From the NCBI GenBank assembly GCA_012861695.1, contig JAAOOA010000468.1, forward strand, positions 124,001 to 188,000: DNA of 64,000 nt, in the 5' to 3' direction. A program made the position numbers and the translations under genes. Below are positions 7,966-54,936 of this stretch, one piece after another (within the stretch, counting starts at the first letter, position 1; each line of letters starts with the position of its first letter). This DNA comes from Trematomus loennbergii (lineage: Eukaryota; Chordata; Actinopteri; Perciformes; Nototheniidae). A model generated the notes under the pieces. It had not been told where the DNA came from. It saw nothing but the letters and a program-made list of their open reading frames with translations, and made no database searches.

Positions 7966-7968
7966 TAT

Positions 7969-11213: not shown

Positions 11214-11239
11214 CAAGCCCCCCCAGAATTCACCCATAG

Positions 11240-12145
11240 TCAAAATCCTCGTGCCTGGGAGGAAGTACCACCCGACCCCGGCGCGTACGGACCACCGGGG
11301 CCGAGGAGGGGGGCCGCAGGCGAGGGCAGGGGCAGGGGCGCCAACGAGGGCGAGGGCATCCCCACAGGGGGCGGGGGGCGGGCCATGGGAGGGCGGCCCC
11401 GACGTGGGGGCAAAGCCAACTCCAACGGCCTGGAAACGTCCACGTGAGCAGGCTTAACCCGATCAACAGACACAGTCTCAGGCCTGCCACCAACGTCCAC
11501 CACCAGGCTCTTGTCCCCGTGACGTATGACCCTGAACGGACCGTCGTACGGGGGGCGCAGGGGGCCGCGGTGGGCGTCGTGGCGAATAAAAACGAAATCC
11601 GCCGACCGTAATCCGGGGGACACCCGGAAAGCTGGGCTGCTGTGCTGCGACGTTGGGACGGGCGCGAATGTCCCGGCGGCCTCCAGCAGGGAGGAGCGCT
11701 GCCCGGCCGCAGACCAGGGCACAGTGGCGGTGGGAATGAATTCCCCGGGGACCCGTAGCGTCTGGCCGTAAACGAGCTCCGCCGACGAGGACTGCAGGTC
11801 CTCTTTGGGGGCACACCTGAGGCCGAGCATAACCCATGGGAGCTTATCCACCCAGTTGCCGTCTGTCAAGCCGGCACGCAGCGACGCCTTCATGGACCGG
11901 TGAAACCGCTCACACAATCCGTTAGCCTGGGGGTGATAAGCGGTGGTGCGGTGCAGCTTGACCCCCAAACCCACAGCAACAGCGTTCCACAGCTCCGAGG
12001 TGAACTGAGGACCGCGGTCAGAGGAGAGGTCAGACGGGGTCCCGAAACGCGCCACCCACGTGCCGATGAAAGCGCGGGCGACGTCGGAAGCTGACGTCGA
12101 GGTGAGGGGAACGGCCTCGGGCCAGCGGGTCGTCCTGTCCACCAT
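11240..12145 (-). pseudogene. Gypsy integrase C-terminal part, out of frame with pol
   Basis: Continues the integrase core after a one-base lesion near 12150. Visible are [10 protein letters not shown], the second catalytic Asp in [13 protein letters not shown], the catalytic Glu in [11 protein letters not shown], and a proline/arginine-rich C-terminal tail. It belongs to the same polyprotein as 11890-14481. The two frames overlap because of the frameshift, so the integrase could not be made intact from this copy. Confidence 0.88.
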
Positions 12146-14481
12146 CGTAAACAGGTATGTGAAACCGTGAGAGGGGGAAGCGGACCTACGAGGTCGACAT
12201 TGACATGGTCAAACCTCCTCTCAGGAACCGCAAAAAGTTCAAAAGGGGCCCTAGTATGGCGGTGGACTTTGGCCCGTTGACAGGCCACGCATGAGTCGAC
12301 CCAGGACCTCACGTCCTTCTTAAGCCCCTGCCACACGAACTTCTGCGACAACAACCTCACGGACGGCTTCCTACCGGGGTGGGAAAGATTGTGAACCGCC
12401 TCAAAAACGGGTCGGCGCCAGTCCGCAGGGACCAGCGGCCGAGGCTGGCCCGTGGAGACGTCACACCACAGCTTCGCGCCCGAGTCACCGACCGTGACCT
12501 CCTCCAGGCGTAATCCCGTGACCGAGGCCTTGAGGGTTTGGACCCCGTGGTCAGAGGCCTGGTCAGCGCCCATGCGGAGGTAATCGAGGCCCAGCTGCAC
12601 AGCTCCGACAACCGCTCTGGAGAGGCAGTCCGCGACCACGTTAGCCTTGCCAGCGATGTGTCGAATGTCCGTGGTGTACTCGGAGATGTACGAAAGCTGG
12701 CGTTGCTGTCGGGCGGACCACGGCTCGGCCACCTTGGACATGCAGAAGGTAAGCGGCTTGTGATCCACGAACGCCGCAAACTCCCGGCCTTCCAGCAGGA
12801 AACGGAAGTGACGAACCGCCAAATAGAGACCAAGGAGTTCCCTGTCGAAAGCGCTGTACTTGCGCTCCCTGGGAGTCAACTGGCGGCTGAAAAAGGCGAG
12901 CGGTTGCCAGGCGCCGTCGACCCATTGTTCATGCACCGCGCCCACCGCGTAGTCAGACGCGTCGGTGGTGATAGCGATGGGGGCCCCGTGCGACGGGTGA
13001 GCCAACATGGCGGCTTCGCTCAGGGCGGCTTTGGTGGCGTCGAAAGCAACCTCCCTCTCAGCCGTCCAGTCTATGGCCTGGCCGGGGGACTTGTCCTTGA
13101 GGGCCTCGTACAGCGGGCGCATCGTGTGGGCCGCCCGGCGGATAAACCGGTGATAAAACGTCACCATCCCGAGGAACTCCCGGAGCGCCCGAGCTGTAGG
13201 CGGTCGTGGAAAGGCGGACACGGCCTCCACTTTCGACGGGAGGGGGGCGGCCCCACCCTTGTTGATGAGGTGCCCGAGGAACTGGATGGAGGACAACCCG
13301 AACTGACACTTCGCCGGGTTGATAATCAGGCCGTGTTGGTCGAGCCTTGCGAAAAGGACCCGGAGATGTGCCTGGTGCTCTTCGGAGGAGGAGCTGGCGA
13401 CCAGGATGTCGTCTAAATAGACGAAGATGAATGGCATGTCTCTGAGCGCCGAATCCATCAGCCGCTGAAAGGACTGAGCAGCGTTCTTAAGTCCAAAAGG
13501 CATACGCAGGAACTCGAAAAGCCCGAACGGCGTAATCACAGCAGTTTTGGGGACGTCCGAGGGGTGCACCGGAACCTGGTGGTAGCCCCGCACCAGATCC
13601 ACCTTGGAGAAGACCAGCTTGCCCGCCAGGTGAGCAGAGAAATCCTGGATGTGAGGGACCGGGTAGCGGTCTGGCGTAGTGGCGTCGTTAAGGCGGCGGT
13701 AGTCGCCACACGGTCGCCAGCCACCGGCTGCTTTAGGGACCATGTGAAGCGGCGAAGCCCAAGGGCTGCCTGAGCGGCGGATGATGCCCAGACGCTCCAT
13801 GTTGACGAACTCCGACTTGGCGACTGCCAGCATGTCAGGGTTGAGCCGCCGGGCCCTAGCGTATACTGGAGGGCCCACAGTGTCAATGTGGTGCTCTACC
13901 CCGTGCTTGGCGGTGGCAGCGGAAAAGGTGGGCTGCGTCAAGTCGGGAAACTCACTGAGAAGGTGCTGAAACTTGTCACCCTGTGAGAGTGAGCTGGAGA
14001 GCCCGCTGAATGACGCCTCGCCGCGGGTACATGTGAACGAGGCAAATGTCATTGCGTCCACCAGGCGGTTGTTCTTGACGTCCACCAGCAGCCCGTGAGC
14101 GCACAGGAAGTCTGCGCCGAGGAGGGCGAAGGAGATGTCAGCCGTGACGAAATCCCACCTAAACCGCTGACCCTCGAAGCACAGGTCCACTGTCTTTGTG
14201 CCATAGGTGCGAATAGGGGTGTCGTTAGCGGATGTCAAAGGTGGGCCGTGACCCCCACCGGCGGCGTCCTCCACGGTAGCCGGCAGGACGCTCCGCTGGG
14301 CTCCTGTGTCACAAAGGAGTCTGCGACCAGAGAGGGTGTCCCTGATGAACAGGAGCCGGTTGGACGTGCCCACGCTCGCGGCCACTACCGAGCGCAGGCC
14401 TTGGCGTTTCCCGTTACCTTGTAGGTGCAGGGGGGACGGCACATCTTCGCTTTCGCCCCGTAGCGTGCATGGTAATAGCAC
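11890..14481 (-). CDS. pol: Gypsy Pol polyprotein (protease, RT, RNase H, integrase start)
   Basis: Domains in order: aspartic protease with [10 protein letters not shown] (DTG active site), reverse transcriptase with MPFGLKNA and the catalytic YLDDI, RNase H starting [11 protein letters not shown], and the integrase zinc-binding region (HNLSHPGRK... CVACQRAK) leading to VDLVGPLPP, the first catalytic Asp. Near 12150 a missing base sends the frame into unrelated sequence; the rest of the integrase is at 11240-12145. The start overlaps gag by about 97 nt in the -1 frame, as expected for programmed frameshifting. Confidence 0.92.
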
Positions 14482-15074
14482 AGGCCAGGGCTGGAGTCGC
14501 TGACGTCGGCCCTGGAGCTCCTGCTAGGTGGCATGCCTGTACCCGGGAAGGCGCCGCTGTGTGTCGGGGCCAGCACCTCAGGGGTAAAACGCTGGGTTGC
14601 CAGGAAGAACCGGTCAGCCTCCTCGGCCAAAGCGCGGGGCTCGGTAATAGCCGTATTAGCGAGCGCTGTCTGCACATGCGGCGGCATGTGCCGAAGAAAC
14701 AGTTCGATAAACAAAAAATTAGGCTCCTCCGTACCCAGCAGGCTGAGCATCATCTCCATATGGTCTGAAGGCTTGTTGTCCCCCAGGCCATGAATAGCGA
14801 GCAGGCGTCGGGCCCGCTCCGACCGTGACAGCTCGAACGTCTTCAGCAGGAAAGCCTTGAACGCTGCATATTTATCCAGGGCAGGGGGAGATGTGATAAA
14901 ACCCACCGTCCGGGTCGCAGTGGAGCTCCCCAGCGCCGAAACGACGTGAAAATAGCGCGCTGCGTCATCAGCAACTCCGCGGAGGGCGAATTGAGCCTCC
15001 GCCTGAGCGAACCATGCAGCTGCAGCTGTCTCCCAAAACTCCGGCAGTTTGAAAAAAACGGCGTTATTTGCCAT
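14385..15074 (-). CDS. gag: Gypsy Gag (CHCC-type)
   Basis: About 229 residues from [15 protein letters not shown] (start chosen because it is the first ATG after the primer site). It contains a capsid-like helical region and ends with a cysteine/histidine motif of spacing C-x2-H-x9-C-x3-C (LCYYH ... MCRPPC), as known for CsRn1-type Gag, in place of the usual CCHC knuckle. It forms the retrotransposon particle. The truncated copy at 8218-8848 shares most of it. Confidence 0.88.
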
Positions 15075-15105
15075 GTTCTGAACAGTCTCGGAATCTTCAA
15101 CGAGA

Positions 15106-15123
15106 CTAACGTCGGGGTCACCA
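15106..15123 (-). other. tRNA-Trp primer binding site
   Basis: On the minus strand TTGGTGACCCCGACGT follows the 5' LTR directly. It is complementary to the 3' end of vertebrate tRNA-Trp (established primer of CsRn1-clade elements). Confidence 0.85.
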
Positions 15124-15124
15124 A

Positions 15125-15322
15125 TGTGGTGCCGAGAGACGGGAGTCGGAGGCGGTGTATCGAATGAACAAGCTAGACCTTTATTTTGCATCTGAACTTC
15201 ATGTCAACACAACATGCACGAGGAGAAGAATACCGGCGGAAACCTAAGTCCGCCTCACTCAAATGTCCGTGCGGAACAATACAGTACAGTAGATCTGTGG
15301 GTGGATAATGTCAATCACCACA
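15125..15322 (-). repeat. Gypsy 5' LTR
   Basis: 198 bp, TG...CA ends. On its right it abuts the target-site copy ATAG, which is also the outer edge of the TIR transposon. Confidence 0.92.
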
Positions 15323-15325
15323 ATA

Positions 15326-16558
15326 GGCTTGTTTGAGACAAGCGAGACCTGCGCAGACCTGTGCAATTGCGATCAACGTCTTGCTAGTGCGTTGCATGAT
15401 GGTTAGTCATTTTGTCCGACTTGCTCTGGAGGCTCGCCTACATGAGACGTTGAAATCTCGCGGGACAAAGACGCCCGCAGACTTGAGAGCGAGGCGCGGC
15501 GAGGCGGCGCAGTTTCTCTCCACGGGCTGCGGAAGCGAAATGCTTGATGGGAAACGACTCGCTGATATCTCGAGCTGAGCGCTCATTGGTGGGTTTTACC
15601 GTGCTGGAGATGAAACTCTCCATTGGCTCGGCAAAAGTGTGTTGTTGTTTTGTGTCAGTTTTACGTTGCCACTTCCATTCACATTTTTCATCATTGTTCC
15701 ACAATGTTTATCATCATTAAATTAATATCTATATATTTGTATACTATACTTGCACTGCTTACCGTTGTCATACTTTATATATCTTAGCATATTCATACAA
15801 CACACTGTTCATACTAGGCTAGGCTACTGTGTATATAGTATATTCATACCCCTCACTGTTTATTCATCATTCAATTCATTCTATATTTTATTCTGTAGAT
15901 TGTGTACATTACTTTTCACTTTACTGCTTTATGCACTCCTGGTTAGAAGCTAAACTGCATTTCGTTGTCTCAGTACCTGTAATCTGTGCAATAACAATAA
16001 AGTTGAATCTAATCTTGAGCAGGAACAAATGTATTTACTTAGTACATATCTGACATTAACGATTAAACACATTTGTCCATTCTTTATCAATCAATCAATC
16101 AATCAATGTTTATTTATATAGCCCAATATCACAAATGTTACATTTGTCTCAGTGGACTTCACAGTTTGTACAGAATATCAGTATGACAATATGACACCCT
16201 CTGTCCTTACGTTTCACATCATACAAGGAAAAACTTCCAGAGAAAAACCCACAGTTTAAAGGGGAAATGGGAGAAACCTCAGGGAGAGCAACAGAGGAGG
16301 GATCCCTCTCCCAGGACGGACAGACGTGCAATAGATGCCGTGTGCATTTATAAATGCAAACCGAGTCAAGCCGACTCCGGAGGTGGCAGTATGCACCTTA
16401 AAGTTGTTTGAAATCCGCCAAAAAACCGAGAGAAGAAGAAGAAGAAGCCGACTCCGAGCTGTCCGACTTCAGGCGAGTTTTTTTAGAGACCTCCCCCGGC
16501 TGCAATCGGCTATTCTCGTCTACTTTCGAGGCGAGCCGCAGCTCGTCTCAAACAAGCC
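15326..16558. mobile_element. TIR DNA transposon, right copy
   Basis: Same family as 6731-7965, inverted: GGCTTGTTTGAGAC at the left end and GTCTCAAACAAGCC at the right, with TA on both sides (15324-15325 and 16559-16560). Removing it and the Gypsy rejoins an H4 upstream region (ending near 11010) to an H4 promoter (starting at 16561), matching the uninterrupted arrangement at 54.48 kb. It is non-autonomous, with no transposase frame. Confidence 0.8.
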
Positions 16559-16632
16559 TAGTGTGGAGGCTGCAGCGTTGGCCCCGCCTAGCAGCTTTCC
16601 TGCTCTCCGTCTTCTCTTAGGTCCGCAGTGAA

Positions 16633-16691: not shown

Positions 16692-17016
<325 letters not shown>

Positions 17017-19138: not shown

Positions 19139-19196
19139 GACCAATGAGCGTACAGCTGCGCTCCAATATAAACTGGTGAGAACTGTGATGGAGTTA
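19139..19196 (+). promoter_or_regulatory. H2A promoter and predicted transcription start
   Basis: CCAAT at about 19140-19145, a second CCAAT-like CTCCAATA running into the TATA box TATAAAC at 19167-19173. Twenty-nine bases downstream, at 19196, begins ACTTTCTTCTTAACGTCG. That string marks the exact 5' boundary of three stacked leader segments at the head of the LINE at 52.0-52.17 kb, which independently supports 19196 as the cap site. Confidence 0.8.
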
Positions 19197-19260
19197 CTTT
19201 CTTCTTAACGTCGAAGAATAATCACATATAAATGTCTGGTCGCAACAAAAAAAAAAAAAA

Positions 19261-19270
19261 AAAAGGTGCA
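19261..19270 (+). repeat. 5' target-site duplication of LINE copy A
   Basis: AAAAGGTGCA, repeated at 20266-20275 on the other side of the LINE. It corresponds to H2A codons 6-8 (AAA GGT GCA). Confidence 0.85.
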
Positions 19271-20629
<1,359 letters not shown>

Positions 20630-20663
20630 TGAACACCCTGATCCCGCTTCAACAAACAACAAA

Positions 20664-20679
20664 GGCTCTTTTAAGAGCC
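20664..20679 (+). terminator. Histone mRNA 3' stem-loop (H2A)
   Basis: A perfect GGCTCTTTTAAGAGCC followed by ACCCAC, about 32 nt after the H2A stop. Confidence 0.95.
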
Positions 20680-20689
20680 ACCCACTTCT

Positions 20690-21955
20690 AACTAAAAAAC
20701 ATTTCCCTCTTCACTACACAACTACTTAATGGCCCAGAACAGTAATCTCCCCCCTTGCCCTATATGTATTGAGGTGTACAACCTATACAACATGTCATAT
20801 TACACCAAGTCACTCAACTAAAAACACCCACATTATAGAGCAATATACACTTGAAACATAACCCTAAATTACTATTATGATATTTGTATTTGTTGGGTTG
20901 TAGTCGTATTTCAACTAAAGCAAACTCCTTTTCACACTTTCCTTCGTACATCCAGCAGGTTAATCACCACATTCTCAAATGAATAGCGGTGGTTTCTACA
21001 TCTGTCTGTCCACATAAATAAAGCCCCAACGTTTGTTGGACCCATCATTAATGTGTAACTCAGTTTACACTACACTATATCAGTATTACTTATTGGCAGG
21101 TGTCTGCAGTTCACCGATCAATAGCGTACTGTAACGTTTCAGCACTCGATTGTATATTTTGCCCACACGCACATTGAAATGAATACAACTGGTTATATTT
21201 CGTTCCAGCCTTTATCCACCAGATGTCAGTGTTCACCAACAAATGTTTGGAGCAGAAAGAAAATAGTGGCTCTATTGTAGTGGAATAAATATGAACACAT
21301 TTGTCTTTCTAACAGTTCTTTATTTATTTTGTATTTTAAGAAATGAGGTACATCTAGGTACATATATTAATGTTATTATCTCTTAGCCAATTAGCAGTTC
21401 TTTAATGTGACCATTGTATATTATACCGTTAGGAGTTAGTTTAGTAGCTCTAAAACATACATGGCACAAACTATTATACAGCACTATTTAAGATTAGATA
21501 AGCATGTAAATAGTAACATCTTGAAGAACATTGTTTAAACTAAACTGTATTTTAGCATCCCACAGTTAGATGCAAGTGTCTTGCTGCAGTGTCCACTCGA
21601 AGTATACACCATTATCGACTATAATGTTCAAACACGAATACTAGTGTGTACACCTGATGTTACTTTAAATATATATACCCATAAACGGGTACATATACAT
21701 ATATCTCAGAATAAATCATTATAAACAAGTTTTTAAAGACCAAAATTATATCAGATTAGTTGTATGGGCTTTTTCTCAACAAACCACTAGGGCCTGCATT
21801 ACAACCCAGTGGTAGTAGCAATATGGATCAACATTGTAGGCTTTTATATACTATGTTATCATAATGTGTTACTTTGTCCCCTTTATAGCATGGGCCAATC
21901 AGTTTATGAAGTATATCTACACATGTATTTCGGACGTTCTGCTCTGTAAGTGTGT
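20690..21955. other. AT-rich spacer between H2A and H3
   Basis: No gene or RNA is recognised. The H2A and H3 genes converge on it. A CCAGATGTCAGTG patch near 21220 resembles the edge of a common fish repeat, but boundaries are not clear. Confidence 0.4.
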
Positions 21956-33379: not shown

Positions 33380-33702
<323 letters not shown>

Positions 33703-35849: not shown

Positions 35850-37075
35850 TGAACAAATCCACAATTTCTCAGGATGTGATAATGGTACAATCCTGTAGAT
35901 TATGGGAAACTATTCAAATTCAAATGTAGAGAATTAAATAAAGCTAAAATAGTAAATATGTTACTCTAATCAAACAGTATATCATTTTAAAACAGATTAA
36001 AGTTAAATCTAAAACGGGTGAAGAAAATATTTCTCATTTAAAACTGAAATTGATTGAACTAAACCAGGAAGTATCACACACAATATCTGAAATATATAAT
36101 AGAGGAAACTTAACTTATGCCATTAACGTTTAAGTTAAATTAAACAAGAAATTAAAATACTTGGTTTGACTGTAATGAAAACTGTGCTGACCTAAATTGG
36201 GAGAATAAACTGATTGAAGTCAAAGAAGTAGTAAAAAAAGGGGAAAATACAAACACAAATTATAAAAAAGAATTAACATCGTTAAAACATTCATACTAGG
36301 AAATATCCTTTTCTTGGCAAACATTTTCCCCCCACCCTCCCAAATAATTAAACAATTAAACAAACATTGCATACATTTGGTGTGGGGCACAACGAGGGAG
36401 GTTACTCAACGTAATTTATTATTTAAAAGAAGGGACTATGGAGGCATGGGAGCCATAGACCTAGATATTAAACTTCAAATTACTTTTGTTAAAATGTTTA
36501 CAGTGGCAATATCAAGGAAAGCACCCTGGGTTGGGGATATATCAAGGTGGAAAAAAAGGAGAGGTAGAGCAAGACATGGCCCATATTACAAATTAGTATA
36601 TGCTGATTCATAAATGAATATACAACTTTAAATGGAATGGACTTCCAAGTATATATATATTTGCTTTAAATAAATGAATACAAATATGGCGGATATATTA
36701 TATACAAAAACCTATCACTTATTGAAAGCACCCAAGTTGTTTCTTCTGCATCCCTTGTATGCAGATATAGAAGACCAGATGCACCGTGGTAATACATCAA
36801 ACAATGATTAAAAGTTGTACCATAACAAAACATATCGGAACCGAGCTAAGGAGAAGAAAAAGCCTCGACAATTCACAGACTACCATGGAGCATACGAGTC
36901 TGTGATTGAACAAAGGCTGATCGGACAATTCCCTTTCTGCTGTCTGAAATACTGTTCTTTTGTGTTTAAGTATGTGTCGTGTGTACATGTTTTTATGTAG
37001 TGGTTTGTGTATGTCTATTATGTATTGACAAAACAATTTGAGTTTTAAAAATAAAAAAGTAAAATCTTCTAATTG
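35850..37075 (+). mobile_element. Tx1-like LINE, internally deleted (copy F)
   Basis: Begins in the region between endonuclease and RT (TTCAAATGTAGAGAATTAAA), jumps from the AACCAGGAA... segment at about 36070 to the post-RT region at about 36140 (GAAATTAAAATACTTGG), and runs to the 3' end at about 37070. So the whole reverse transcriptase is deleted. The C-terminal frame at 36314-36613 reads ANIFPPPSQIIKQLNKH... LVWGTTREVTQRNLLFKRR. Its 3' junction with the H2B spacer is the same as in copies B and G. Confidence 0.82.
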
Positions 37076-37480
37076 AAGTGGTGTATAAAAGGTTGCCTAG
37101 GGTTGTGTGGCATGACACCCAAAAAAAAAAATTAAATATGAAAATAACCACGTGTTGTGTCCTGTTGTAGCCAGAGGGTGCTGTTGGACAGATATATTGC
37201 ATTGAGATGAAAAATAAAGAGAAAGTAAAGCACGGCATATGTCTCTACGGCTAATAATTTGTACTTACACTGCGAGAGAAAAAACACCACATCCTCTTTA
37301 AATCATGCACAAGTTGTGTTCTGCCTGAGCCATTGTGGAAAGTGGTGTGTAAACAAGGCCTCTTTGAACTGTATACGTATCAAATATGTATTTCATGTCA
37401 AGTGATTTACATATCATGTATGCGATGCATGGATCGTGCATGCACTTATTCAAAACAGAGGAACACGTCTATAGAAGTAG
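37076..37480. other. Spacer between LINE fragment and H2B
   Basis: Shared with 3.82-4.27 kb (direct) and 52.85-53.18 kb (inverted); this copy lacks about 60 bp around the C/D-box-like patch. No gene. Confidence 0.45.
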
Positions 37481-38020: not shown

Positions 38021-38107
38021 ATCGTCTGCGCATGACTGAGCCTACGATGTACTTTGATCAGATGTAGCCTATCTACTGTATTGGATTGTAAGAAGGGGAA
38101 ACAAGTA

Positions 38108-41100
38108 TTTAAATTAAAAACTGAAATTGATCAATTAAACCAGGAATCATTATATAATATTCATACAACATCTGAAATAGATCAAAGAGGCAACTTGGCT
38201 CAAGCCATTAAAACCAACCAAAAGCAAATTCAAAGTAAATTCATCAAATGTATAAAAATCAAGAAGGTTGTATTGTGTATAATGAAAAACAGAAACGAGA
38301 AGTGATAAGAGATTTATGTTCTGAAGCATATAAAAAAATAGACATTGAAACGGACTGTGTTAAAACTCTTTTGGGAACTATCCCTCCATACAACATCCAA
38401 GAATTTGATTTCCTTCTCTGTGAAATTAGAAAAGACGAGGTGATCCAGGCGGTAAAAGAGCTGAATGTTGGTAAGAGCCCCGGTCCTGATGGCCTGCCCA
38501 CTGAGTTTTATCAACTATTATCTGATGATGTTTTAAACTTACTAACCTCTATGTTTAATGAAGGTCTCAGCAGTGGTTGTTATGGGGACTCATTTTATGA
38601 AGGTGTCTTGACTCTACTATATAAAAAAACGATGAAACTGATATAGATAATTACAGACATTTAACTATAATGAATACTGCTTATAAGATACTAGCAAAAA
38701 TAATAATTAATAGATTAACAGATATACTAGATAAAATAATAGATAAAGAGCAAACATGTGCTATAAAAGGTCGCCTCATGTGGGACAACTTATCAATTTT
38801 GAGAGAAATCATAAATAAACCAAAAGAAGAAAAAATTGTTATTTATTATTGGGCTTGATAAAAAAAAAGCCTTCGACTATTTATCCAGAGATTACTTATG
38901 GTCGGTGATGAAGGCCTACGGATTTCCTGAAGCCTTCATAAACATGATTAAGTGTCTGTATTTTAAGTCTTGTATCTGTGTAAATGTAAACGGTGTATTG
39001 ACAAATGCATTTAATGTTGAAAGAGGGGTTAAGCAGGGCTGCCCTCTAAGCGCAGCTCTGTACGTGCTAGCCATAAATCCATTAATTAAAATAATAAACA
39101 ACGACAGGTTAATATCAGGAACACCAGTTGGCCATGCGCCCAAAATAACTGCCATCGCCTATGCAGACGATGTCACTGTTATTATAAAAAACCAACAAGA
39201 AATGGATGTTCTAACAAACCACCTAAACTTATATGAATTGGCATCAGGAGCTAAATTAAACCACAACAAAACTGAAGGTGTCTGGATCGGCACCGACGAT
39301 GCCAAATGCGACATAAACATTCAAGTGAAAAAAGAAATTAAATACTTGGAATAACTATTTGTAGCGACAACTGTGCTGAACTCAATTGGGAGAACAAACT
39401 AAGTGAAGTCAAAGAACAAGTTAAACAATGGGAATAAAAATACAAATTATAAATCAAGAATAAACATAATAAAATCATTCATAGTTAGCAAGATCCTTTT
39501 TCTAGCAAACATTTTCCCCCCACCAGCCCAAATAATTATGCAATTAACAAACAGTGTGTCAACTTGGTGTGGGTACAACAAGGGAGGTTACTAAACGTAA
39601 TTTGTTATTTAAAAGTAGGGAATATGGAGGCCTGGGAGCCATAGACCTGGGCATTAAACAAAAAATGACCTTTGTAAAAAACATCTCGGCTGCAATAAAT
39701 AGGAAATCACCTTGGGTTGAAGATGGAGAAATGGGATGGCAAAAAAGAAGAGGCAGAGCTAGAAATGGGCCATATTACAAATTAGTTTGTGGTGATTTCA
39801 CAACTGAAGTTCAACATTTAGGGATTGATTGGATCGGACTACCGAATAGAGTAATTTTTAAAATGGTAAACGATTTCAAATATGGAGGTGTTATAAGTAA
39901 ACATACAAAAACCTAACACCAGGGGCCTATACTACGGTGCCGTTTACACGAGGACAAAACAGCTTGTATCTGCATAGTTTCTCTTACGTATAGCCCTATT
40001 ATTTACACGAGGCCGTAACAAACGGACCCCACAAACGATAACGGGTCCCAAGGTGGATAGATTTGCAAACGAAATCTCTGGGGGGTCAAACGAGTCCGTG
40101 TAATCGCCTCTATACGAATATTTCCTGAAAAAACAACAAAACAAACAACAAAATTAAACAGTCCGCTCTGCAATACACCAAAATTGTCTTTACTGCCTAA
40201 TCCAGGCCATTATTGTTCATTGCTCCTGCGCCCGTCGGCGGCAAAAAGAGAAATGTTTGTAGGCCTATTCAGGCTATAATCCACACCAAAAAGGAAACAC
40301 GAGACCGGCGTGTCCCAGAGGAGCGATCTCACCCGGTGTTTGTAGAGAATATCTCTCTTTCTGAGCACGTCCTCTCCACGGAGACGTGCTTCTTGGTCGG
40401 TCGATGCAATATCCACAGATTCGGTTTCTTTCAGTTAACTTCCCCGTTGCATTTATCCATATATTTACATGCTGAGGAAATTACTATATCCCGCTGAATA
40501 CCAGCAATCGCCACACACACTTCCTCCTGTCAGTAGCTACTGCTAGTGCTACTGCTACTGACCATGCTACAGATGTTAGTGCAAAATCTACAGCTCCTCT
40601 ACCACAACCATCAGCAACAAGTGGACATGGAGAATTACATGAACTACATGTTGCTAAATCCACCGCGGGGCATAAACAGAAGGGTAGCCATGGCAACATT
40701 GCTCCGGGGTCTTCTTCACTGCTTTTGGTGTATTTTGTGGCGGAAGTTACAGCGCCACTTACAGTCCCGGCTATGTACTACAGCGTTTTCCAGCGGTCTC
40801 GTTTGAACAGACACGTTAAATGAAACGAATGCATGTGAACGGAAGACTTTTTGAAAACGCATACTGTGTTTTCCGGTCCTACGACGCTGGTTCTCTTTTT
40901 AGCGGGCTAGATCTCCATGGTAACTTATGCTGAGCGGCTAACCTCCTCGGGAGGAGGTTAGGTTGCAGGCTAAGAGATCAACTCACTGAAAGCACCGCCT
41001 GCTGACCAATCAGAGCTCCGTGTGCGGAGTTAAAGCTATCAAGTCATATTACAGGATAGAAATACAGAAAAACTGCCGTTGCAGGAAAGACGGCCGGCAA

Positions 41101-42334
41101 AAATCAACTGACTGTGTGAACGTGAACATTAATAGAATATCCCCTCCCATCTTCAGAGCAATCTGACTATATAACATTAGCGTTAAGAAAGCTTACTTAA
41201 ATATCTGCCACAACATAAGTAACCGGATCAGAGTAACATTAAGTACAGTCCGCGGCACTGTGAGTGCAGACGTCGATGTGTCCCATTATCATTCATAGCA
41301 TATCACATCATAATATATCATATATTTCCTTATTTGAGTCAGCTTCTTGAGCCGTATCTGGCCGTGCAACACTCACAGTGTCACATACTGTATGCAGAAG
41401 TATTATTTTAAGCAACACATTAAGTTGACAAAACACTCGAGTCAAATGTAATTAAAGTCAGATCCACTCGTGTCTTGGACGGGGCAGTGATATCATATCA
41501 TCTTGTCCATGTTTGAGATTGGTTGAATGCTCCAAATACCACCCCTTTCATGTGAACGCGCACCTAACTAGATAGGACACGGCTGGCTTGAGCGATCCAC
41601 TTGATAACCAGCATCGTAGTACAGTTTAGCGAGAGCGCGTATGTTTTGGATTGGGCCAACCGGCTAACTCAAACATATCCAGTTTAGGTTGAACCAGCTT
41701 CGTAGTACAGGCCTCGGACGAAGGTAACGAAGTCTTGAAATTAGTGAAAAGTAAACAGTTATCGGAGAGCATGAGAGACGTGAGGTGGCTGATATCGGTT
41801 AACAGACTTGCGGTCAGAGCTGTAGTCTCGTGAAAACTAGAACATGCCCCATGATTAACTGTGAGGAAGACGAAACTTTACAGCACCTCCTCATGGACTG
41901 CTACAGAGCCGAGGAGGTGTGGTCGCTCCTACGGGGCATCGGTTTGGAGTTCAATGTAGAATATGTCTCAATTATGTATTGCATTCTGGATAAACACAGG
42001 GAACTTTTTCAGCTGGTAATTTGTATAACATGTATGAAAATCTGGAAAACAAGGTGCAAGATGATACTAAATCAGACGATAATAAACAGTGGCACCATCG
42101 TGAAACAAATACTTACTGAACTAAGGAGAAGAAAAACCTGGACAAACCCCAGACTCAGCCATGGGGCATTTTGAGTCTGTGACCGAACTGAGTCTCATTG
42201 GAATATAAACGTGCTCTCTTTATGTTATTTATATATTTATGCATTGTGTGTCGTGTGTATTATTAATGTAACTTTTGTATATCATGTACTGCCAAATCAT
42301 TTAAAATAAAGTTTTCTAAAAAAGAAAAAAAAAA
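38108..42334 (+). mobile_element. Tx1-like LINE, 5'-truncated, with nested DNA transposons (copy C)
   Basis: LINE sequence runs 38108-39920 and resumes 41715-42334, ending in an A-rich tail. It starts between the endonuclease and RT and includes the RT core: GKSPGPDGLPTEFYQ, GVKQGCPLSAALY, and the catalytic AYADDVT (about 39157-39177). It is followed by ANIFPPP and LGAIDLG segments and the ORF2 end near 42172. Several frameshifts and a stop in the RT region (near 38640 and 38858) make it inactive. Its 5' junction (GAAACAAGTATTTAA next to LINE) is the same as the outer junction of the LINE at 52.2 kb, but the 3' flank differs. Confidence 0.85.
39921..41714. mobile_element. Nested DNA transposons inside LINE copy C
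   Basis: The outer element has ends AGGGGCCTATACTACG and, inverted at the right, AGGCCTGTACTACGAAGCTG. It interrupts the LINE between the codons of the AACCTAACACC and GACGAAGGTAACG segments. A second element of about 0.9 kb (roughly 39937-40880, starting GTGCCGTTTACACGAGG) lies within it, with CTACG on both sides as a possible target duplication. No transposase is recognisable in either, and the superfamily is uncertain. Confidence 0.65.
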
Positions 42335-42744: not shown

Positions 42745-43429
<685 letters not shown>

Positions 43430-43439: not shown

Positions 43440-44148
43440 CTTCCTTTTATTATTTATAGTTTTATAAAGGTTTCATGGGGAATTCTCCTTCCATATATTA
43501 GAAATATCCCACTGTTCATCAATCATTCACCTTGTTATGATGGCCAACTGAAGGAACACATATCTACTGCACATTTAATTCCCACACAGATATGGTAGGC
43601 TACCATGCGCATTATTCTGATGTTTGAACTGTCTTGTAGAGCCACTCTGCTGGGACATAGACATTTAATACATTAGCTATATAATAATAATACCTGTCAT
43701 TTATATAGCCTTTTTCCCGATGCTCAACGCGCTTTCATATATAATTTTTAAATCTCTCGCTGTTCTATATATTACCACATGAACCAAAGAACATTAATTA
43801 ACCTTCATAAATGCATTTAATGCAGTGCTAAAGGGTTGGAGTTCACTCATTTGTGTCTTATCTTTGACAATATATGAACAATGAGTGATGAAAATGGGAA
43901 TAATAAAAAGTGGAACCAAAAATAGAGACAGTTAATGACTGAAGACATTTCCATAACAACATTTAAACATGAATATAAATGTAAATAGCTATTTTACTAA
44001 ATATATATATGTATATATATATATCATTAATTAAATTATATAATGTTGTGTTACATCACAGCTAAATAAGATCCCTTGATTCAATCAGACAAAAACAAAA
44101 GTGTTTAACATGCTCATTCCAGCGGCATTCCATGTTCAGAATAATGTT
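43440..44148. repeat. H2A 3'-flank spacer
   Basis: The inverted, shorter copy of 4.89-6.04 kb, including the TATATAGCC... repeat-tail patch near 43690. No gene. Confidence 0.6.
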
Positions 44149-44163
44149 TTAAATACTTGTTTC
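44149..44163. repeat. 15-bp target-site duplication, left
   Basis: TTAAATACTTGTTTC next to the poly(A) tail (as T12, 44164-44175) of the minus-strand LINE. It is repeated exactly at 52215-52229 beyond the other end of the LINE block. Confidence 0.85.
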
Positions 44164-44389
44164 TTTTTTTTTTTTAGAAAACTTTATTTTAAATTATTAG
44201 GGCAGTACATCAAGTTACATCAATAATACACACATCACACTAAGTATAAATATATAAATAACATAAGGAGAGCACGTTTTACTTATGAGGCTCAGTTAGG
44301 TCACAGACTCAAGATGCCCCATGGCAGAGTCTGGGATTTGTCCAGGGTCTTTTTTCTCCTTAGTTCAGTAAGTATCTGTTTCACTATGG

Positions 44390-44791
44390 TGTTACGTGCC
44401 GCAGTTGGTGCATTTGTGTGTGTCTCTCTCTCTCCCTGATTGTCTCCAGGTGCAGCCTCTCCCCCAGGTGCTCCCAATCCCCAATCAGGGCCTCCATATA
44501 GGACCTGAGGAAGGCTGCAGTCTCTCTCCTTCTCCTCTGGCTGCATGTGTGCAGCAGGGTGTTTCTGTCTCTGTGTGAGACCTGTGTTTTGTTCATCATT
44601 AGGAGATGTGCTCCAGTGTATAGTTGTGTTTCAGTTTACTTTGCAAGTTGGCTGGTGAGCCCTTTTTTGTATCCATTAAAACCTCACTTGGTGGCTTTAT
44701 ATATCAGTTTCCTCTCCTTTTTTCTCTCTCCTGGTCTTTTCATATGTTGTTACTTCCCTCTGGTTCCCCTAGCCCAGTAAGGAACGTAACA
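44390..44791 (+). repeat. 5' LTR of nested element
   Basis: 402 bp, from TGTTACGTGCC to GGAACGTAACA. Confidence 0.92.
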
Positions 44792-44808
44792 TGGGGGCTC
44801 GTCCAATC
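44792..44808 (+). other. tRNA-Pro-type primer binding site
   Basis: TGGGGGCTCGTCCAATC directly after the LTR. The first 13 bases match the complement of the tRNA-Pro 3' end. Confidence 0.75.
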
Positions 44809-45487
44809 TTTGAGACAAAGAGTGAGTATTTGTTTGTTGATATTGTGGTGGTGAGCAGGTGTGTGTGTGTGTGTGTTGTATATAAGTGTAGCATTGGCTG
44901 TGAAGTCTCTTACTGTTTAACAGCTTCCTCAGTTTAGATAGGGGAGTGTCTAGCTGGGCTGAATCAGTCCTTCCTTCAGGCACTCATTTATTATTTTGCC
45001 TTTTTTATTTTCGGGGTAATCCTGGGTTGGGATTTAGTCCCTGTTGGGGGCAGGCGTTTCAGGGTTTCGGCCGCTGATGTTTGCCTTTAAAGTCGCCTCG
45101 AGCCCGGCACGCTCCAGAAGATAGTTAGGTAAGTTGTGGTAGGCAGGATCTGGGGAAGTTTGTTATTTGGAAGACTAGAGTAAATTTTTGTGTAGCATCA
45201 GATATATTTGCCTGTTGAGTGAGGTGATTTAATTGTAGCTGGCGAGTAGTTGCAAATTAGTTTGTGTTTAGTATGGCTCCCTTGTGTTGGGTGAGTCCTC
45301 TCATACTGGTTCTAAATTAGATGCCGGGTTGAAAGTGAGGTTAGTTCGTCTCCAGTGGGAGAAGGAGGGAGCTGGAGATCAGGAAGTCTGAGCTGGAGAT
45401 CAGAAAGTTGGATGCAGACACAGCTTTCAGGATGCGTCAGCTAGAGCTGCAGACAGGTTCAGTGGTATCTCTTCGGGTACACAACCA

Positions 45488-45879
45488 TTGTCATGTTCTA
45501 CTACTGCTTTTGATGTTGGTAGCAACATTCAGCTGGTCCCTGTCTTTCGTGAGTCAGAAGTGGAGACCTTCTTTGGTGCATTTGAGCGCATTGCTGCTGC
45601 TCTGCGCTGGCCAGAAGATGTGTGGGCCATACTTGTACAGTGCAAGCTAGTCGGCAAGGCTCAGGAGGCTTGCTCTCTCTTTCTGTCGAGGATTGTATGG
45701 TGTATGACAAAGTGAAAGGTGCTGTTCTCAGGGCATATGAGCTTGTGCCTGAGGCCTACAGGCAGCGTTTCCGCAGCCTGAAGAAAACTTCTGGCCAGAC
45801 TTATGTGGACTTCGCGAGGGAGAAGAAAATCCTCTTTGACAGGTGGTGTAGAGCTTGTAAAGCGGATGACATTACTTAA
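45488..45879 (+). pseudogene. gag remnant (SCAN-like capsid)
   Basis: Two overlapping frames (45488-45715, 45622-45879) give FRESEVETFFGAFERIAAAL and VYDKVKGAVLRAYELVPEAY, then RQRFRSLKKTSGQTYVDFAR. This pattern of helices is that of SCAN-like Gag capsid domains in fish Gypsy-type elements. Frame breaks and a stop after DDIT make it non-functional. Confidence 0.75.
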
Positions 45880-46089
45880 TGTGTGAGCTAATGATGTTAG
45901 AGGATTTAAAACTGTGTGCCTGAGCGTACGGTAGTCTAAACGAGCAAAGGTACTACCTTCAGCAGGCTGCCACTCTGGCAGACGAGTTTGCACTGATACA
46001 AAGCGTTTTTTTCAGTGATCCTTACCTTAGTAGAGCTCCTGACATTACGTCCCCGTGCCAGTTTCCAGTTAGATCCCAGCTAAAAAGCT

Positions 46090-46131
46090 TGTTTTTTTTG
46101 TCATAACCCTGGTCATTTGATAGCACACTGT
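46090..46131 (+). pseudogene. CCHC zinc knuckle remnant of gag
   Basis: Reads CFFCHNPGHLIAHC, spacing C-x2-C-x4-H-x4-C, the nucleocapsid knuckle. A second, mutated version (CFFCLDPGH then stop) lies near 46308-46337. Confidence 0.8.
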
Positions 46132-46617
46132 GCAGCTTTGAAGCGAAGCAGGCTGCCACTATGGCGGATGTGGAAGGGATTGTGCTATCACACAGTGGTG
46201 TTTTGGCTCAGAGCAATTCTCATCGTGTTGGTTTCCGGAAAGCTTGTAACAGGCGTGCCACACATGCTCATTCTGTTTCTCTTCCAGGACCCAAGAAAAA
46301 GAGATTGTGTTTCTTTTGTCTTGACCCTGGTCACTAGTGGCAGAGTGTGTAGCTCGGAAGAAGCAGGTGGCAGCTTCCAAGCGGTCTGTGGAAAAACCAA
46401 GAGACCAGCACCCAGTTGCAATGCGACAGAGTGGTGAGTTGCAGTTAAGTTCTGCGTCCGTCTGTGACAGTGCTGTGGGTGTTCCCGTTTCTGAAGCGGT
46501 GGCTGTGGACCTGGCTCAGAGCGATGTGGATCTGTGTTCAGTGAGTGATGTGTGTGTTCCATGTGTTCCGGTGTTTGCTGCTTGTGGGCAGTATAACGTG
46601 TGTTTTATGGGGGGGGG

Positions 46618-47019
46618 TGTTATGTGCCGCAGTTGGTGCATTTGTGTGTGTCTCTCTCTCTCCCTGATTGTCTCCAGGTGCAGCCTCTCCCCCAGGTGCT
46701 CCCAATCCCCAATCAGGGCCTCCATATAGGACCTGAGGAAGGCTGCAGTCTCTCTCCTTCTCCTCTGGCTGCATGTGTGCAGCAGGGTGTTTCTGTCTCT
46801 GTGTGAGACCTGTGTTTTGTTCATCATTAGGAGATGTGCTCCAGTGTATAGTTGTGTTTCAGTTTACTTTGCAAGTTGGCTGGTGAGCCCTTTTTTGTAT
46901 CCATTAAAACCTCACTTGGTGGCTTTATATATCAGTTTCCTCTCCTTTTTTCTCTCTCCTGGTCTTTTCATATGTTGTTACTTCCCTCTGGTTCCCCTAG
47001 CCCAGTAAGGAACGTAACA
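46618..47019 (+). repeat. 3' LTR of nested element
   Basis: 402 bp, from TGTTATGTGCC to GAACGTAACA, almost identical to the 5' LTR; preceded by TTTTATGGGGGGGGG. Confidence 0.92.
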
Positions 47020-50189: not shown

Positions 50190-51843
50190 TTAGCCCGTTT
50201 TTCTATTTCGTTCAAGTTTCTGCTTGCAGGTCTTTTTTTTAGAGACCTCAAACGGGGCTTCCCTCTGAGCCTCACTCGGGGGTCTGGATAATCCGGAGTC
50301 GGTGAAAAAGACCCAGAGTGACTCTCAGGGGGCGAGTAGAGGGCATGTTGACTCGCTGACCAGCTGTAAGGCTGTCAGGGCTAGAGTCAGATCCTGGGCT
50401 TTCGCTCACACTCTCATAGTATTTATCATCTTCAATCTCACTGTCAGAGCTGTAATCACTCTCGCGTCACTATCAATGGTTAGTTTACCTTCACCTGACA
50501 GGGGTGGAGAGTCGTCTTCAGGAGATGAAGGGAGAGGGACATCCTTGCTGGCAGGACGACGATCAGGCTGCTGCTGGGCTGAAGGACCAGGACCAGGACC
50601 AGGCTGCTGCTGGGCTGAAGGACCGGGACCGGGAGCTGGCTGCTGGGCTGAAGGACCGGGACCGGGACCGGGCTGCTGGGCTGAAGTACGAGGCTGGGCT
50701 GCAGGTCGAGGGCCGGGAGCGGCTGCTGGGCTGAAGGACCGGGACCGGGCTCGGGGCTGCTGGGCTGCAGGTCGAGGCCGGGACCGGGCTGCTGGGCTGA
50801 AGGACCGGGACCGGGCTGGGCTGCTGCTGGGCTGCAGGATGAGGGCCGGGACCGGGCTGCTGCTGGGCTGCAGGTCGAGGGCCGGGACCGGGCTGCTGGG
50901 CTGAAGGACCGGGACCGGGCTGCTGATGGTCAGCAGGTCGAGGACCGGGTCCGGGCTGGGCTGAGGGACCAGGACCGGGCTGCTGCTGGGCTGCAGGACG
51001 GGGCTGCTGCTGGGTGACTGAAGGAGGACCAGGCTGCTGCTGGGTAACTGAAGGAGGGCCAGGCTGCTTTTGGGCTGCAGGACGAGGCTGCTGCTGGGTT
51101 TTTGCCTTGTTTACATAAGAAGATGGGCAGTTGAAGAAGTTGTGTCCAATCTTTCCACACAGGTTGCAGAGACTGTCTGAATCGCAAGCTTTAGCCTTGT
51201 GGCCCAGTTCATTGCATCTCCAACATTTCACTGTGGTGCATTTTCTGACCTGATGGTCAGCTGAGTTGCAGATGAAACAGGTGACGGATTGCCCTGGATA
51301 AATTATTCTGCCATTATAAGGGCCGAGAGATATCGAATTTGGGAGATTTTGGATCTCACCATCACTGTTTCGATTCATCTTAATTTTGTATTTTCTCACT
51401 CCATACCATATCCCAAATGTATCTACTGGTTTGTATTTGCTGATTATATTTCCATATCTCTTCAAATAGGTCTCAACATCATGGTCTGGAATACGGCCAG
51501 TCCAGAATTTAACAATAATGTTTGAGATGTCCATTTGAATGGAAGATTCGAAAGTCCAGTCTTTCCACTTGGGATCTGAGGATTTAGTTGTGAGAACGTC
51601 AAGGAAACGTCTCAGTGGAGCTTCTAGCAAAAAGCAGAGTTCAAACTCCTTTCTGTTTGGCAGTGCTATGAAGGAATATACTTCATTTGTATTGATCCAG
51701 CAGGTATCAAATAACAGTGATTCTCCAACATATTCACGACTAGGGGGTTCTCCTGAGCCTGTGAAGTTCAGGCGAACCCAAAACTGTCCAAATTTTGAAG
51801 CAAAAGATGGCACGCTTCCAGGGAGAGACTTTTTTTTTTTCAC
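50190..51843 (-). pseudogene. LINE ORF1 (zinc-knuckle RNA-binding protein), frameshifted
   Basis: N-terminal part (51843 to about 51300) reads SFASKFGQFWVRLNFTGSG and continues as an RRM-like or Tx1-type domain. Then come three CCHC knuckles, CFICNSADHQVRKC, CWRCNELGHKAKAC and CNLCGKIGHNFFNC (about 51270-51130). A long run of QQPGPGP-type repeats follows in which the frame slips twice, then an acidic serine-rich tail and a basic end, as seen intact in copy A. The open frame as it stands begins at a GTG after an A-run; no in-frame ATG remains, so the true start was in the histone-derived leader or has been lost. Confidence 0.82.
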
Positions 51844-51844: not shown

Positions 51845-52168
51845 CTATTTCACCTCCTCCTCCTTTCCTTCCAGTCATTTTGAGTCTGTTGGAACGGGTC
51901 GTTCAGAACGAAACATCAAAACGGTCAACTATAGTTACGGGCATTTTCCAGCACCTGCACCTTTTCCGCGACCAGACATTTTCTATGTGATTATTCTTCG
52001 ACGTTAAGAAGAAAGTCCTCGTCCAGACATTTTGGAGTCTTGGTAGATCGGGTCGTTCAGAACGACGTTAAGAAGAAAGTCCGGTCTTGCCTCTTCCTGA
52101 CATGTTGAGTTAGTTTTTGATCGAGCTACGGAAAAAAAAAAAATATTCTTCGACGTTAAGAAGAAAGT
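51845..52168 (-). other. Stack of captured histone 5' leaders and start codons
   Basis: On the minus strand, five pieces in order. L1 (52168-52144): 25 nt identical to the native H2A leader, then T12. L2 (52131-52081): a leader plus ATGTCAGGAAGAGGCAAGAC (MSGRGKT). L3 (52080-52017): ACTTTCTTCTTAACGTCG joined to an H4-like leader (TTCTGAACGACCCG), with ATGTCTGGACGAGG (MSGRG). L4 (52016 to about 51943): full H2A leader with ATGTCTGGTCGCGGAAAAGG (MSGRGKG). L5 (about 51930-51852): H4-like leader with ATGACTGGAAGGAAAGG. L1, L3 and L4 start at the same base. ORF1 follows directly. Confidence 0.88.
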
Positions 52169-52171
52169 ATT

Positions 52172-52214
52172 ATATAATGATTCCTGGTTTAATTGATCAA
52201 TTTCAGTTTTTAAT
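52172..52214 (-). mobile_element. Stub of the outer, 5'-truncated LINE
   Basis: About 43 bp reading AATTAAAAACTG... AACCAGGAATCATTATATAA on the minus strand. It is the same piece that starts copy C at 38108. It is cut off where the leader stack begins. Beyond it is the 15-bp duplication. Confidence 0.75.
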
Positions 52215-52229
52215 TTAAATACTTGTTTC
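52215..52229. repeat. 15-bp target-site duplication, right
   Basis: TTAAATACTTGTTTC, identical to 44149-44163. Next to it continues the H2A-H2B spacer towards the H2B promoter. Confidence 0.85.
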
Positions 52230-52841: not shown

Positions 52842-53194
52842 ACCCACTACATCTATAGACGTGTTCCTCTGTTTTGAATAAGTGTTATGCACGATCCATG
52901 ATTCGCATACATGATATGTAAATCACTTGACATTAAATACATATTTGATACGTAAATAGCCGTAGAGACATATGCCATGCTTTACTTCATCTTTATTTTT
53001 CATCTCAATGCAATATATCTGTCCAACAGCACCCTCTGGCTACAACGGGACACAACACGTGGTCATTTTTATATTTAATCTCAGCATCAGGAAAGCCGTA
53101 AACGTTCATCATTGACCCTGGAAAGATTATCATTTTTTTTTTGGGTGTCATGTCACACAACTTTAGGCAACCTTTTATACACCACTTCAATTAG

Positions 53195-53870
53195 AAGATT
53201 TTACTTTTTTATTTTGAAAACTTTTTTAATTGTTTTGTCAATACATAATAGACATACACAAACCACTACATAAATATGTACACACGACACATATAATACA
53301 TACTTAAACACAAAAGAACAGTATTTCAGACAGCAGAAAGGGAATTGTCCGATCAGCCTTTGTTCAATCACAGACTCCGTATGCTCCATGGTAGTCTGTG
53401 ACTTGTCCAGGCTTTTTGTTTTCCTTAGCTCGGTTCCGATATGTTTTGTTATGGTACAACTGTTAATTATTGTTTGATGTATTACCACGGTGCATCTGGT
53501 CTTCCATGTCTGCATACAAGGGATGCAGAAGAAACAACTTGGGTGCTTTCAATAAGTGATTTTTTATATAATTTATCCGCCATATTTGTATTCATTTATT
53601 TAAAAACAAATATATATATACTTGGAAGTCCATTCCATTTAAAGGTGTATATTCATTTATGGAATCAGCATATACTAATTTGTAATATGAGCCATGTCTT
53701 GCTCTACCTCTCCTTTTTTTCCACCTTGATATATCCCAACCCAGGGTGCTTTCCTTGATATTGACACTGTAAACATTTTAACAAAAGTAATTTTAAGTTT
53801 AATATCTAGGTCTATGGCTCCCATGCCTCCATAGTCCCTTATTTTAAATAATAAATTACGCTGAGTATAA
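53195..53870 (-). mobile_element. Tx1-like LINE 3' fragment (copy G)
   Basis: The inverted counterpart of the 3' part of copy F: the C-terminal ORF2 region (LLFK... GGMGAIDLDIK, near 53780-53870) and the terminal segment (VIHQTIINSC, TELRKTKSLDKS) with an A-rich tail next to 53200. It is truncated at about 53870 where the H4 upstream spacer begins. Confidence 0.8.

Positions 53871-54550: not shown

Positions 54551-54936
<386 letters not shown>

What the first reader, a model, noticed from the sequence alone, without database searches (positions are those of the whole stretch)
51845..52168. A LINE whose 5' end is a stack of captured histone mRNA leaders
Seen: ahead of LINE ORF1, on the minus strand, lie five segments. 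Four of them end in a start codon followed by MSGRG-type codons of H2A or H4, and all show histone leader sequence. Segments L1, L3 and L4 start with the identical base and string (at 52168, 52080 and 52016). In the native H2A at 19.2 kb this string starts 29 bp after the TATA box. Inference: each boundary is the cap site of a chimeric transcript (histone leader + first codons + LINE), reverse-transcribed in full and inserted again just after the start codon of another histone gene. Repeating the cycle stacks leaders like growth rings. It would give the element an S-phase histone promoter for free. I know of Tx1-group LINEs specific for other multicopy genes but of none described as histone-specific.
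Basis: partly seen in the sequence, partly recalled or inferred. Interest (0 to 1): 0.96.

Follow-up and report, generated by a model that had tools for sequence, protein, structure and literature searches.

The report
LINE wearing stacked histone gene leaders
A fish jumping gene carries at its front end a stack of start pieces matching H2A and H4 histone genes, which likely record repeated landings in histone genes whose promoters it borrowed for the next jump.

Summary
On the minus strand, 52168-51845 joins histone 5' pieces ahead of a LINE ORF1. Three units begin with the same 18 nt (52168, 52080, 52016), the string that starts 29 nt after the TATA box of the H2A gene at 19.2 kb. Random 324-bp pieces away from histone genes share no 12-mer with histone 5' regions (0 of 1000); the stack shares 46. 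Unit ends fall at codons 5-9 of H2A/H4 and at one leader site. A truncated copy of the same LINE sits in H2A at codon 5/6 with a 10-bp target duplication. In other fish, 4 of 53 ORF1 hits carry histone sequence. Best reading: serial insertion just behind histone cap sites, each followed by transcription from the host histone promoter. Cap sites are predicted, not mapped. The stacked copy itself lies between H2A and H2B, one 41-nt piece is unexplained, and serial template switching is not excluded. Genome-wide specificity and S-phase expression are untested; the genome search did not complete (12 tries). Seven literature searches listed no histone-targeting LINE.

The parts
52144..52168 (-). 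S1a: first 25 nt of the H2A (19.2-kb type) leader, starting at the predicted cap site; its last 7 nt AAGAATA may be a target duplication
   Evidence: 25/25 identical to 19196-19220
52081..52143 (-). S1b: T-run, leader-like stretch, ATG and MSGRGKTG codons of an H2A; ends 4 nt before the GG|AAAA of KTGGK-type H2A
   Evidence: only the codons match window H2A genes (17 nt at 94%)
52017..52080 (-). S2: 18 nt of the H2A leader fused (shared TCG) to an H4-like leader, ATG, MSGRG; ends exactly at GG|(AAAA)
   Evidence: 18/18 to 19196; 37/49 to the H4 gene at 33690
51954..52016 (-). S3: H2A leader, ATG, MSGRGKGAG; ends after AAAAGGTGCAGG, which contains the target duplication seen at 19.2 kb
   Evidence: 47/49 columns to 19196-19243
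51913..51953 (-). 41-nt filler of unknown origin
   Evidence: no match in the window beyond 10 nt
51845..51912 (-). S4: H4-like leader starting within a few nt of the predicted H4 start, ATG, degenerate codons MTGRKGGGG
   Evidence: local score 39 against H4, shuffle maximum 27
50563..51840 (-). LINE ORF1, 425 codons open, with ZCCHC3-type RNA-binding domains, zinc knuckles and a proline-rich tail
   Evidence: Pfam PF23057, PF23058, PF00098
44176..50166 (-). LINE ORF2 (endonuclease and reverse transcriptase, frameshifted) and 3' UTR, interrupted by an LTR-like insertion of about 2.6 kb
   Evidence: Pfam PF03372, PF00078 on its pieces; repeats
44388..47019 (.). insertion inside LINE A flanked by 404-bp direct repeats
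   Evidence: 44388-44791 and 46616-47019, 99.75% identical
52214..52229 (-). left target duplication GAAACAAGTATTTAAA of element A
52169..52213 (-). 45-nt stub of a second LINE ORF2 between the duplication and the stack
   Evidence: 52222-52169 is identical to 38105-38158
44148..44163 (-). right target duplication GAAACAAGTATTTAAA after the A12 tail
19167..19243 (+). H2A gene (KGAG type): TATA 19167, predicted cap site 19196, ATG 19232, codons MSGR
19261..20274 (+). truncated copy of the same LINE inserted in that H2A gene, sense, flanked by AAAAGGTGCA (19261-19270 and 20265-20274)
   Evidence: 19283-20247 is 94.4% identical to element A
20275..20704 (+). rest of the interrupted H2A gene with its histone 3' stem-loop at 20659-20704
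38106..42333 (+). LINE copy D: same H2B-side flank and stub as element A but running on into ORF2, without the stack; interrupted at 39921-41718

Best explanation
The 324-bp front end of this fish LINE is a stack of 5' pieces matching H2A and H4 genes, likely laid down one at a time as LINE RNAs that began at histone cap sites were copied into the next histone gene close behind its own cap site. Proposed cycle: the LINE endonuclease nicks the lower strand just after a G that precedes an A-rich run (GG|AAAAG at codons 5/6 of H2A and H4; CG|AAGAATA in the H2A leader), so the LINE is inserted in the sense direction. The histone promoter then makes a chimeric RNA of histone leader, first codons and LINE. 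That RNA is copied to its 5' end and inserted into the next histone gene, which adds the next leader outside the old one. Shown: the stack, the shared starts, the H2A insertion at 19.2 kb with its target duplication, and histone-joined gene models in other fish. Inferred: that the starts are cap sites, the order of events, the nick site, and use of histone promoters. Untested: S-phase timing and genome-wide target preference.
For: Three units start at the same base, the predicted start of the 19.2-kb H2A (29 nt after TATA, TTACTTT). S2 and S4 begin their H4 part within about 5 nt of an initiator-like CCATTC in native H4 leaders (by eye). Units end at codons 5, 8 and 9, beside GG|AAAA; the in-window H2A insertion has exactly this site, duplication AAAAGGTGCA, sense orientation. 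S1a and S2a fit one leader nick, with and without a 7-nt duplication (sequence). GGAAAAG occurs 14 times in the window, 5 in H2A/H4 tails plus 1 in S3. 46 shared 12-mers against 0 in 1000 controls. Other fish: goby P0003 MSGRGKEAV|MSRAGPG, tilapia P0004 ORF1|[10 protein letters not shown], tilapia P0008 ORF1|VLRDN, cichlid P0012 with antisense H3; 4 of 53 ORF1 hits. Histone genes here carry the 3' stem-loop of replication-dependent histones (13 hits).
Against: The stacked copy itself lies in the H2A-H2B spacer with a duplication GAAACAAGTATTTAAA. Only one stacked copy was seen. 49 of 53 ORF1 hits and 56 of 56 ORF2 hits show no credible histone piece (both hit lists come from capped candidate sets). 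The histone joins in other fish are gene models: splicing across an intact neighbouring histone gene could give P0003, P0004 and P0008. S1b's leader and the 41-nt filler match nothing. S2 needs a hybrid leader. The S4 ATG is not in frame with ORF1, and all six ATGs of the stack reach early stops. The 5' joins at the ends of S1b and S2 lack target duplications. GGAAAAG is not unique to histone genes: 8 of its 14 places lie outside H2A/H4 and the stack. Template switching has hot spots of its own (PMC2104539), so clustered joins do not rule it out. Frequent 1-base frameshifts suggest sequence errors.
Confidence: 0.62

Rival explanations
1. Serial template switching in one event: the reverse transcriptase ran off the 5' end of the LINE RNA and jumped onto one abundant histone mRNA after another.
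For: Double switches during LINE reverse transcription are reported for Magnaporthe and mouse, at hot spots in Magnaporthe (PMC2104539, passages). Unit starts at RNA 5' ends fit run-off. The ORF2 stub between the left duplication and the stack looks like one such jump.
Against: Each jump would have to land within the first ~70 nt of histone mRNAs; five of five landings do, about 1 in 10,000 if landings were even along a ~450-nt mRNA (my arithmetic, and evenness is an assumption). The landing points match the site where the LINE is really inserted in H2A. In the cited tripartite case a 3' fragment of the second RNA was added.
Confidence: 0.2
2. The stack arose by recombination, gene conversion or tandem duplication among histone 5' ends and LINE copies in the cluster, with no RNA step.
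For: The cluster is full of inverted and direct duplications. D and A are about 96-97% identical over the first ~1400 columns and 83-90% after that, gaps left out, so mosaic copies exist.
Against: Units derive from different genes (H2A, H4) and share only their first 18-25 nt; no matched unit includes the TATA box upstream of the predicted start, which recombination has no reason to avoid.
Confidence: 0.1
3. Assembly or read artefact in a repeat-rich histone cluster.
For: Several core histone genes carry single-base frameshifts, as expected of unpolished long reads.
Against: The stack is 324 bp, well inside one long read, and its junctions fall at meaningful positions; the 19.2-kb insertion is independent of it.
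Confidence: 0.05

Closest known systems
Target-specific Tx1-clade LINEs (Keno in U2 snRNA genes; Tx1L)
   Same: Apurinic-type endonuclease LINE found in fish, inserting into a multicopy gene family; Keno is described as U2-specific (PMC6136364, PMC4640811, passages)
   Different: Targets listed in 2015 are rRNA and tRNA genes, spliced-leader exons, transposons, microsatellites and telomeric repeats, with U2 for Keno (PMC4640811, passages); here the target is the start of protein-coding histone genes, and leaders accumulate. Clade placement not settled.
Drosophila HeT-A/TART telomeric LINEs
   Same: A promoter in the 3' UTR drives the neighbouring element (PMC10313855; PMC5537684; passages); HeT-A RNA is most abundant in S phase (PMC11698117, passage). 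From recall: HeT-A 5' ends carry stacked 'tags' of the upstream element (Traverse 2010; title seen in a reference list, text not held)
   Different: HeT-A borrows from another HeT-A at chromosome ends, and its 5' UTR is also said to hold a promoter; this element would borrow from host histone genes.
R2 in 28S rDNA
   Same: No promoter of its own, thought to be co-transcribed with the gene it interrupts (PMC2881922, passage)
   Different: From recall: R2 has a restriction-like endonuclease and a self-cleaving 5' end that removes host sequence; here host leader is kept and stacks.
Chimeric retrogenes made by LINE template switching (MINE)
   Same: LINE cDNA fused at its 5' side to other cellular RNAs (PMC2104539, passages)
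   Different: Here about five joins, all at the 5' ends of histone transcripts and near the LINE's own insertion site.

Membership tests
Tx1 clade / L1 group LINE | ORF2 with apurinic-type endonuclease and reverse transcriptase | tested here: met
   PF03372 and PF00078 on window pieces
Tx1 clade / L1 group LINE | ORF1 with CCHC zinc knuckles (a feature of the group from recall) | tested here: met
   PF00098
Tx1 clade / L1 group LINE | reverse transcriptase falls inside the Tx1 clade | tested here: inconclusive
   a relative (P0054, 45% identical to the ORF2 read-through) is nearest in the PDB to L1 ORF2p (1.4e-69) before R2 (7.3e-23); no labelled Tx1 sequence was at hand and no tree was built
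Tx1 clade / L1 group LINE | insertion at one site of a multicopy sequence | tested here: inconclusive
   codon 5/6 of H2A in one direct case and three fossil joins at codons 5-9; at least one copy (A) is elsewhere
HeT-A-like element with 5' tags | 5' end carries pieces of the upstream transcription unit from its cap site on | tested here: inconclusive
   units start at a predicted but unmapped cap site
HeT-A-like element with 5' tags | head-to-tail telomeric arrays | tested here: not met
   copies in the window lie among histone genes, in both orientations
Template-switch chimeric retrogene | flanking target duplication around the whole chimera | tested here: met
   GAAACAAGTATTTAAA on both sides of element A; it also fits the ring model
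Template-switch chimeric retrogene | joined RNA taken from its 3' end or from scattered internal points | tested here: not met
   the pieces that could be matched are the first 18-70 nt of histone transcripts

The most novel reading that the evidence does not exclude
A family of fish LINEs that is aimed at the start of H2A and H4 genes, has no fixed promoter, and lives on the promoter of whichever histone gene it last broke; each life cycle adds that gene's leader to its own 5' end, so the element carries a readable itinerary of its hosts and would be born in S phase.
Probability: 0.42. Interest if true: 0.88.

Novelty: new variant of a known kind. Interest (0 to 1): 0.77.

Why it matters
It would be a non-LTR retrotransposon aimed at protein-coding, cell-cycle-regulated genes instead of RNA genes. 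It would give a natural record of successive insertions in one molecule, and a parallel to HeT-A in which host genes supply both the promoter and the tags. LINE integration is thought to prefer replicating cells (from recall), so tying LINE RNA to S-phase histone promoters would make that link directly testable.

Tried and rejected
Own-genome search for other stacked copies: the same request was sent 12 times and never answered. Viral contigs: the 18-mer gave 0 hits; the ORF1 profile gave 74 pattern hits, none confirmed.

Idea that the S4 ATG opens ORF1: rejected as written, since it reads MTGRKGGGGEIG-stop and is out of frame across an A11 run; a slip in that run cannot be excluded. Idea that A is a simple nested insertion into a D-like copy: kept only as one option, because A's 3' part is 83-90% like D while the flank is 97.7%. 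Idea that tilapia P0004 proves insertion inside H4: weakened, because a gene model spliced into an intact H4 gene could give the same join.

Rows dropped before counting: a 21-residue chance match of P0046 to antisense H2B (E 0.21) and internal SGRG/GRGK strings in P0013, P0016 and P0023, a 13-residue match in P0095 (E 0.033) and GRGK strings in P0068, P0069, P0073 and P0075. P0042, a TRIM protein with only an ORF1 tail, is among the 53.

Literature for a histone-targeting LINE: searches; I saw the listings only (titles and starts of abstracts; for some only 20 of 597, 20 of 107 and 15 of 54 papers), plus passages of 11 papers. None reports one. PMC5599702 passages concern mapping; PMC6136364 passages report ERV1 and Gypsy pieces in histone clones, not a LINE. 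PMC3235214 passages gave nothing on 5' tags.

Full report
WHAT IS THERE. The window is a fish histone gene cluster: H1, H2A, H2B, H3 and H4 genes and 13 histone 3' stem-loops. Several copies of one LINE lie among the genes in both orientations. The fullest copy, element A, runs on the minus strand from 52168 to an A12 tail at 44175-44164, with ORF1 at 51840-50563 and a frameshifted ORF2 from 50166. An insertion at 44388-47019, flanked by 404-bp direct repeats 99.75% alike, interrupts it. ORF1 carries ZCCHC3-type RNA-binding domains and zinc knuckles. ORF2 pieces carry an apurinic-type endonuclease and a reverse transcriptase.

THE STACK. Read on the minus strand: S1 (52168-52081) starts ACTTTCTTCTTAACGTCGAAGAATA, then a T-run, a leader-like stretch and ATG with MSGRGKTG codons. 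S2 (52080-52017) starts ACTTTCTTCTTAACGTCG, runs into an H4-like leader and ends in MSGRG. S3 (52016-51954) is the whole H2A leader of the 19.2-kb type and ends in MSGRGKGAG. A 41-nt piece of unknown origin follows, then S4 (51912-51845), an H4-like leader with degenerate first codons. Alignment to seven histone leaders of the window gave local scores of 50, 38, 85 and 39 for S1-S4, against maxima of 24, 26, 28 and 27 in 300 dinucleotide shuffles each; the filler scored 14, below the shuffle mean of 15.6. The stack shares 46 12-mers with nine histone 5' regions; 1000 random 324-bp pieces away from histone genes share none.

STARTS. The 18-mer ACTTTCTTCTTAACGTCG occurs four times: at the starts of S1, S2 and S3, and at +19196 in the H2A gene. 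There it lies 29 nt after TATAAA in TTACTTT, an initiator-like context; the H2A genes at 6483 and 42987 have ACTTT 31 nt after TATAAA. No matched unit includes the TATA box. That is what RNA 5' ends predict. The cap site itself is inferred, and at two of the three starts the first A could belong to the sequence before it.

ENDS. S2 ends GAGG; three of four H4 genes in the window continue AAAAGG at that point. S3 ends after AAAAGGTGCAGG. S1 ends ACCGG, 4 nt before GG|AAAA of KTGGK-type H2A. The H2A gene at 19.2 kb is broken by a truncated copy of the same LINE (94.4% identical to A) in sense orientation, flanked by AAAAGGTGCA on both sides: the site inferred from S3. The left duplication there is preceded by a long A-run instead of GG, which could be the scar of an earlier insertion at the same spot (inference). 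The two leader joins, GTCG in S2 and GTCGAAGAATA in S1, fit one further nick, G|AAGAATA, with and without a 7-nt duplication. Duplication or deletion at a LINE target according to where the top strand is cut is an accepted scheme (PMC2881922, figure-legend passage). The motif GGAAAAG itself is not special to histones: 14 places in the window, 5 in H2A/H4 tails, 1 in S3, 8 elsewhere.

THE STACKED COPY'S OWN SITE. Element A as a whole is flanked by GAAACAAGTATTTAAA at 52229-52214 and 44163-44148, in the spacer between H2A and H2B. Between the left duplication and the stack lies a 45-nt stub of another LINE ORF2. Copy D shares flank and stub (786 aligned columns, 97.7%) but runs on into ORF2; D and A agree at 96-97% over the first ~1400 columns and 83-90% beyond, gaps left out. 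A template jump or a nested insertion with later recombination could both explain the stub; I do not decide between them. In either case the RNA that made A most simply began at the start of S1.

OTHER FISH. The ORF1 searches gave 42 and 48 hits, 53 distinct proteins, each from a capped candidate set. Four carry histone sequence: P0003 from the goby Mugilogobius chulae begins MSGRGKEAV before the ORF1 start seen in its sister P0033; P0004 and P0008, named for Nile tilapia (and, in another record, ferret, presumably contamination), both list a longest contig of 4,403,427 bp and pass from the ORF1 end into H4 at KGGKGL and VLRDN; P0012 from Maylandia zebra starts with antisense H3. These are gene models, so insertion inside the histone gene is not proven; neighbourhood is. 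Forty-nine of 53 show none. Of 56 ORF2 hits none has a credible histone piece; the eleven closest (36-49% identity) lie on contigs of 2.5-5.4 kb, where a histone neighbour may be out of reach.

HOW IT LIKELY WORKS. Insertion just behind a histone cap site places the LINE under a histone promoter. The chimeric RNA is copied to its cap and inserted again near the start of another histone gene, which adds a ring. Five or six rings are visible. All six ATGs of the stack reach a stop within 15 codons, so deep stacks may hamper ORF1 translation and be rare. Serial template switching, with known hot spots (PMC2104539, passages), is the main rival; it does not by itself explain why the joins fall at the LINE's own insertion site.

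SETTING. Target-specific Tx1 and R1 clade LINEs, R2 co-transcription and HeT-A promoter sharing are the nearest known cases (passages). HeT-A 5' tags are recalled; the paper's title was seen only in a reference list and its text is not held. The listings of literature searches show no histone-targeting LINE; they cover open-licence papers only and were seen in part.

Noticed in passing
window 51913-51953: 41-nt filler between S3 and S4 with no match over 10 nt in the window; perhaps another leader or the LINE's old 5' UTR.
   Followed up: partly
window 3383-4046, 36403-37253, 52957-53867: LINE 3' pieces sit just downstream of three duplicated H2B genes in convergent orientation, apparently fixed before the duplications.
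   Followed up: partly
window 39921-41718: Insertion of about 1.8 kb in LINE copy D with inverted terminal sequence seen by eye (AGGGGCCTATACTACG / CGTAGTACAGGCCTC), probably a DNA transposon.
   Followed up: no
window 7969-16560: Long LTR-type element beside H2A; its ORFs look gypsy-like by eye, with a 2.1-kb piece repeated inverted at 6726-8850 and 14441-16563.
   Followed up: no
window 4327-4703, 16704-17013, 33383-33690, 42987-43363, 54626-54933, 20304-20602: Otherwise near-perfect H2A, H2B and H4 genes carry frameshifts; unpolished long-read sequence is likely.
   Followed up: no
window as a whole: Besides the unnamed P0001 (95% over 62% of ORF1), the only matches near 90% identity are short ones in Gymnodraco acuticeps (P0042, 89% over 9%) and Dissostichus eleginoides (P0100, 90% over 6%), which hints at a notothenioid host.
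   Followed up: partly
window 19244-19264: A-run of about 20 before the left target duplication in the broken H2A gene, where S3 reads GGAAAA; possible scar of an earlier insertion at the same site.
   Followed up: no
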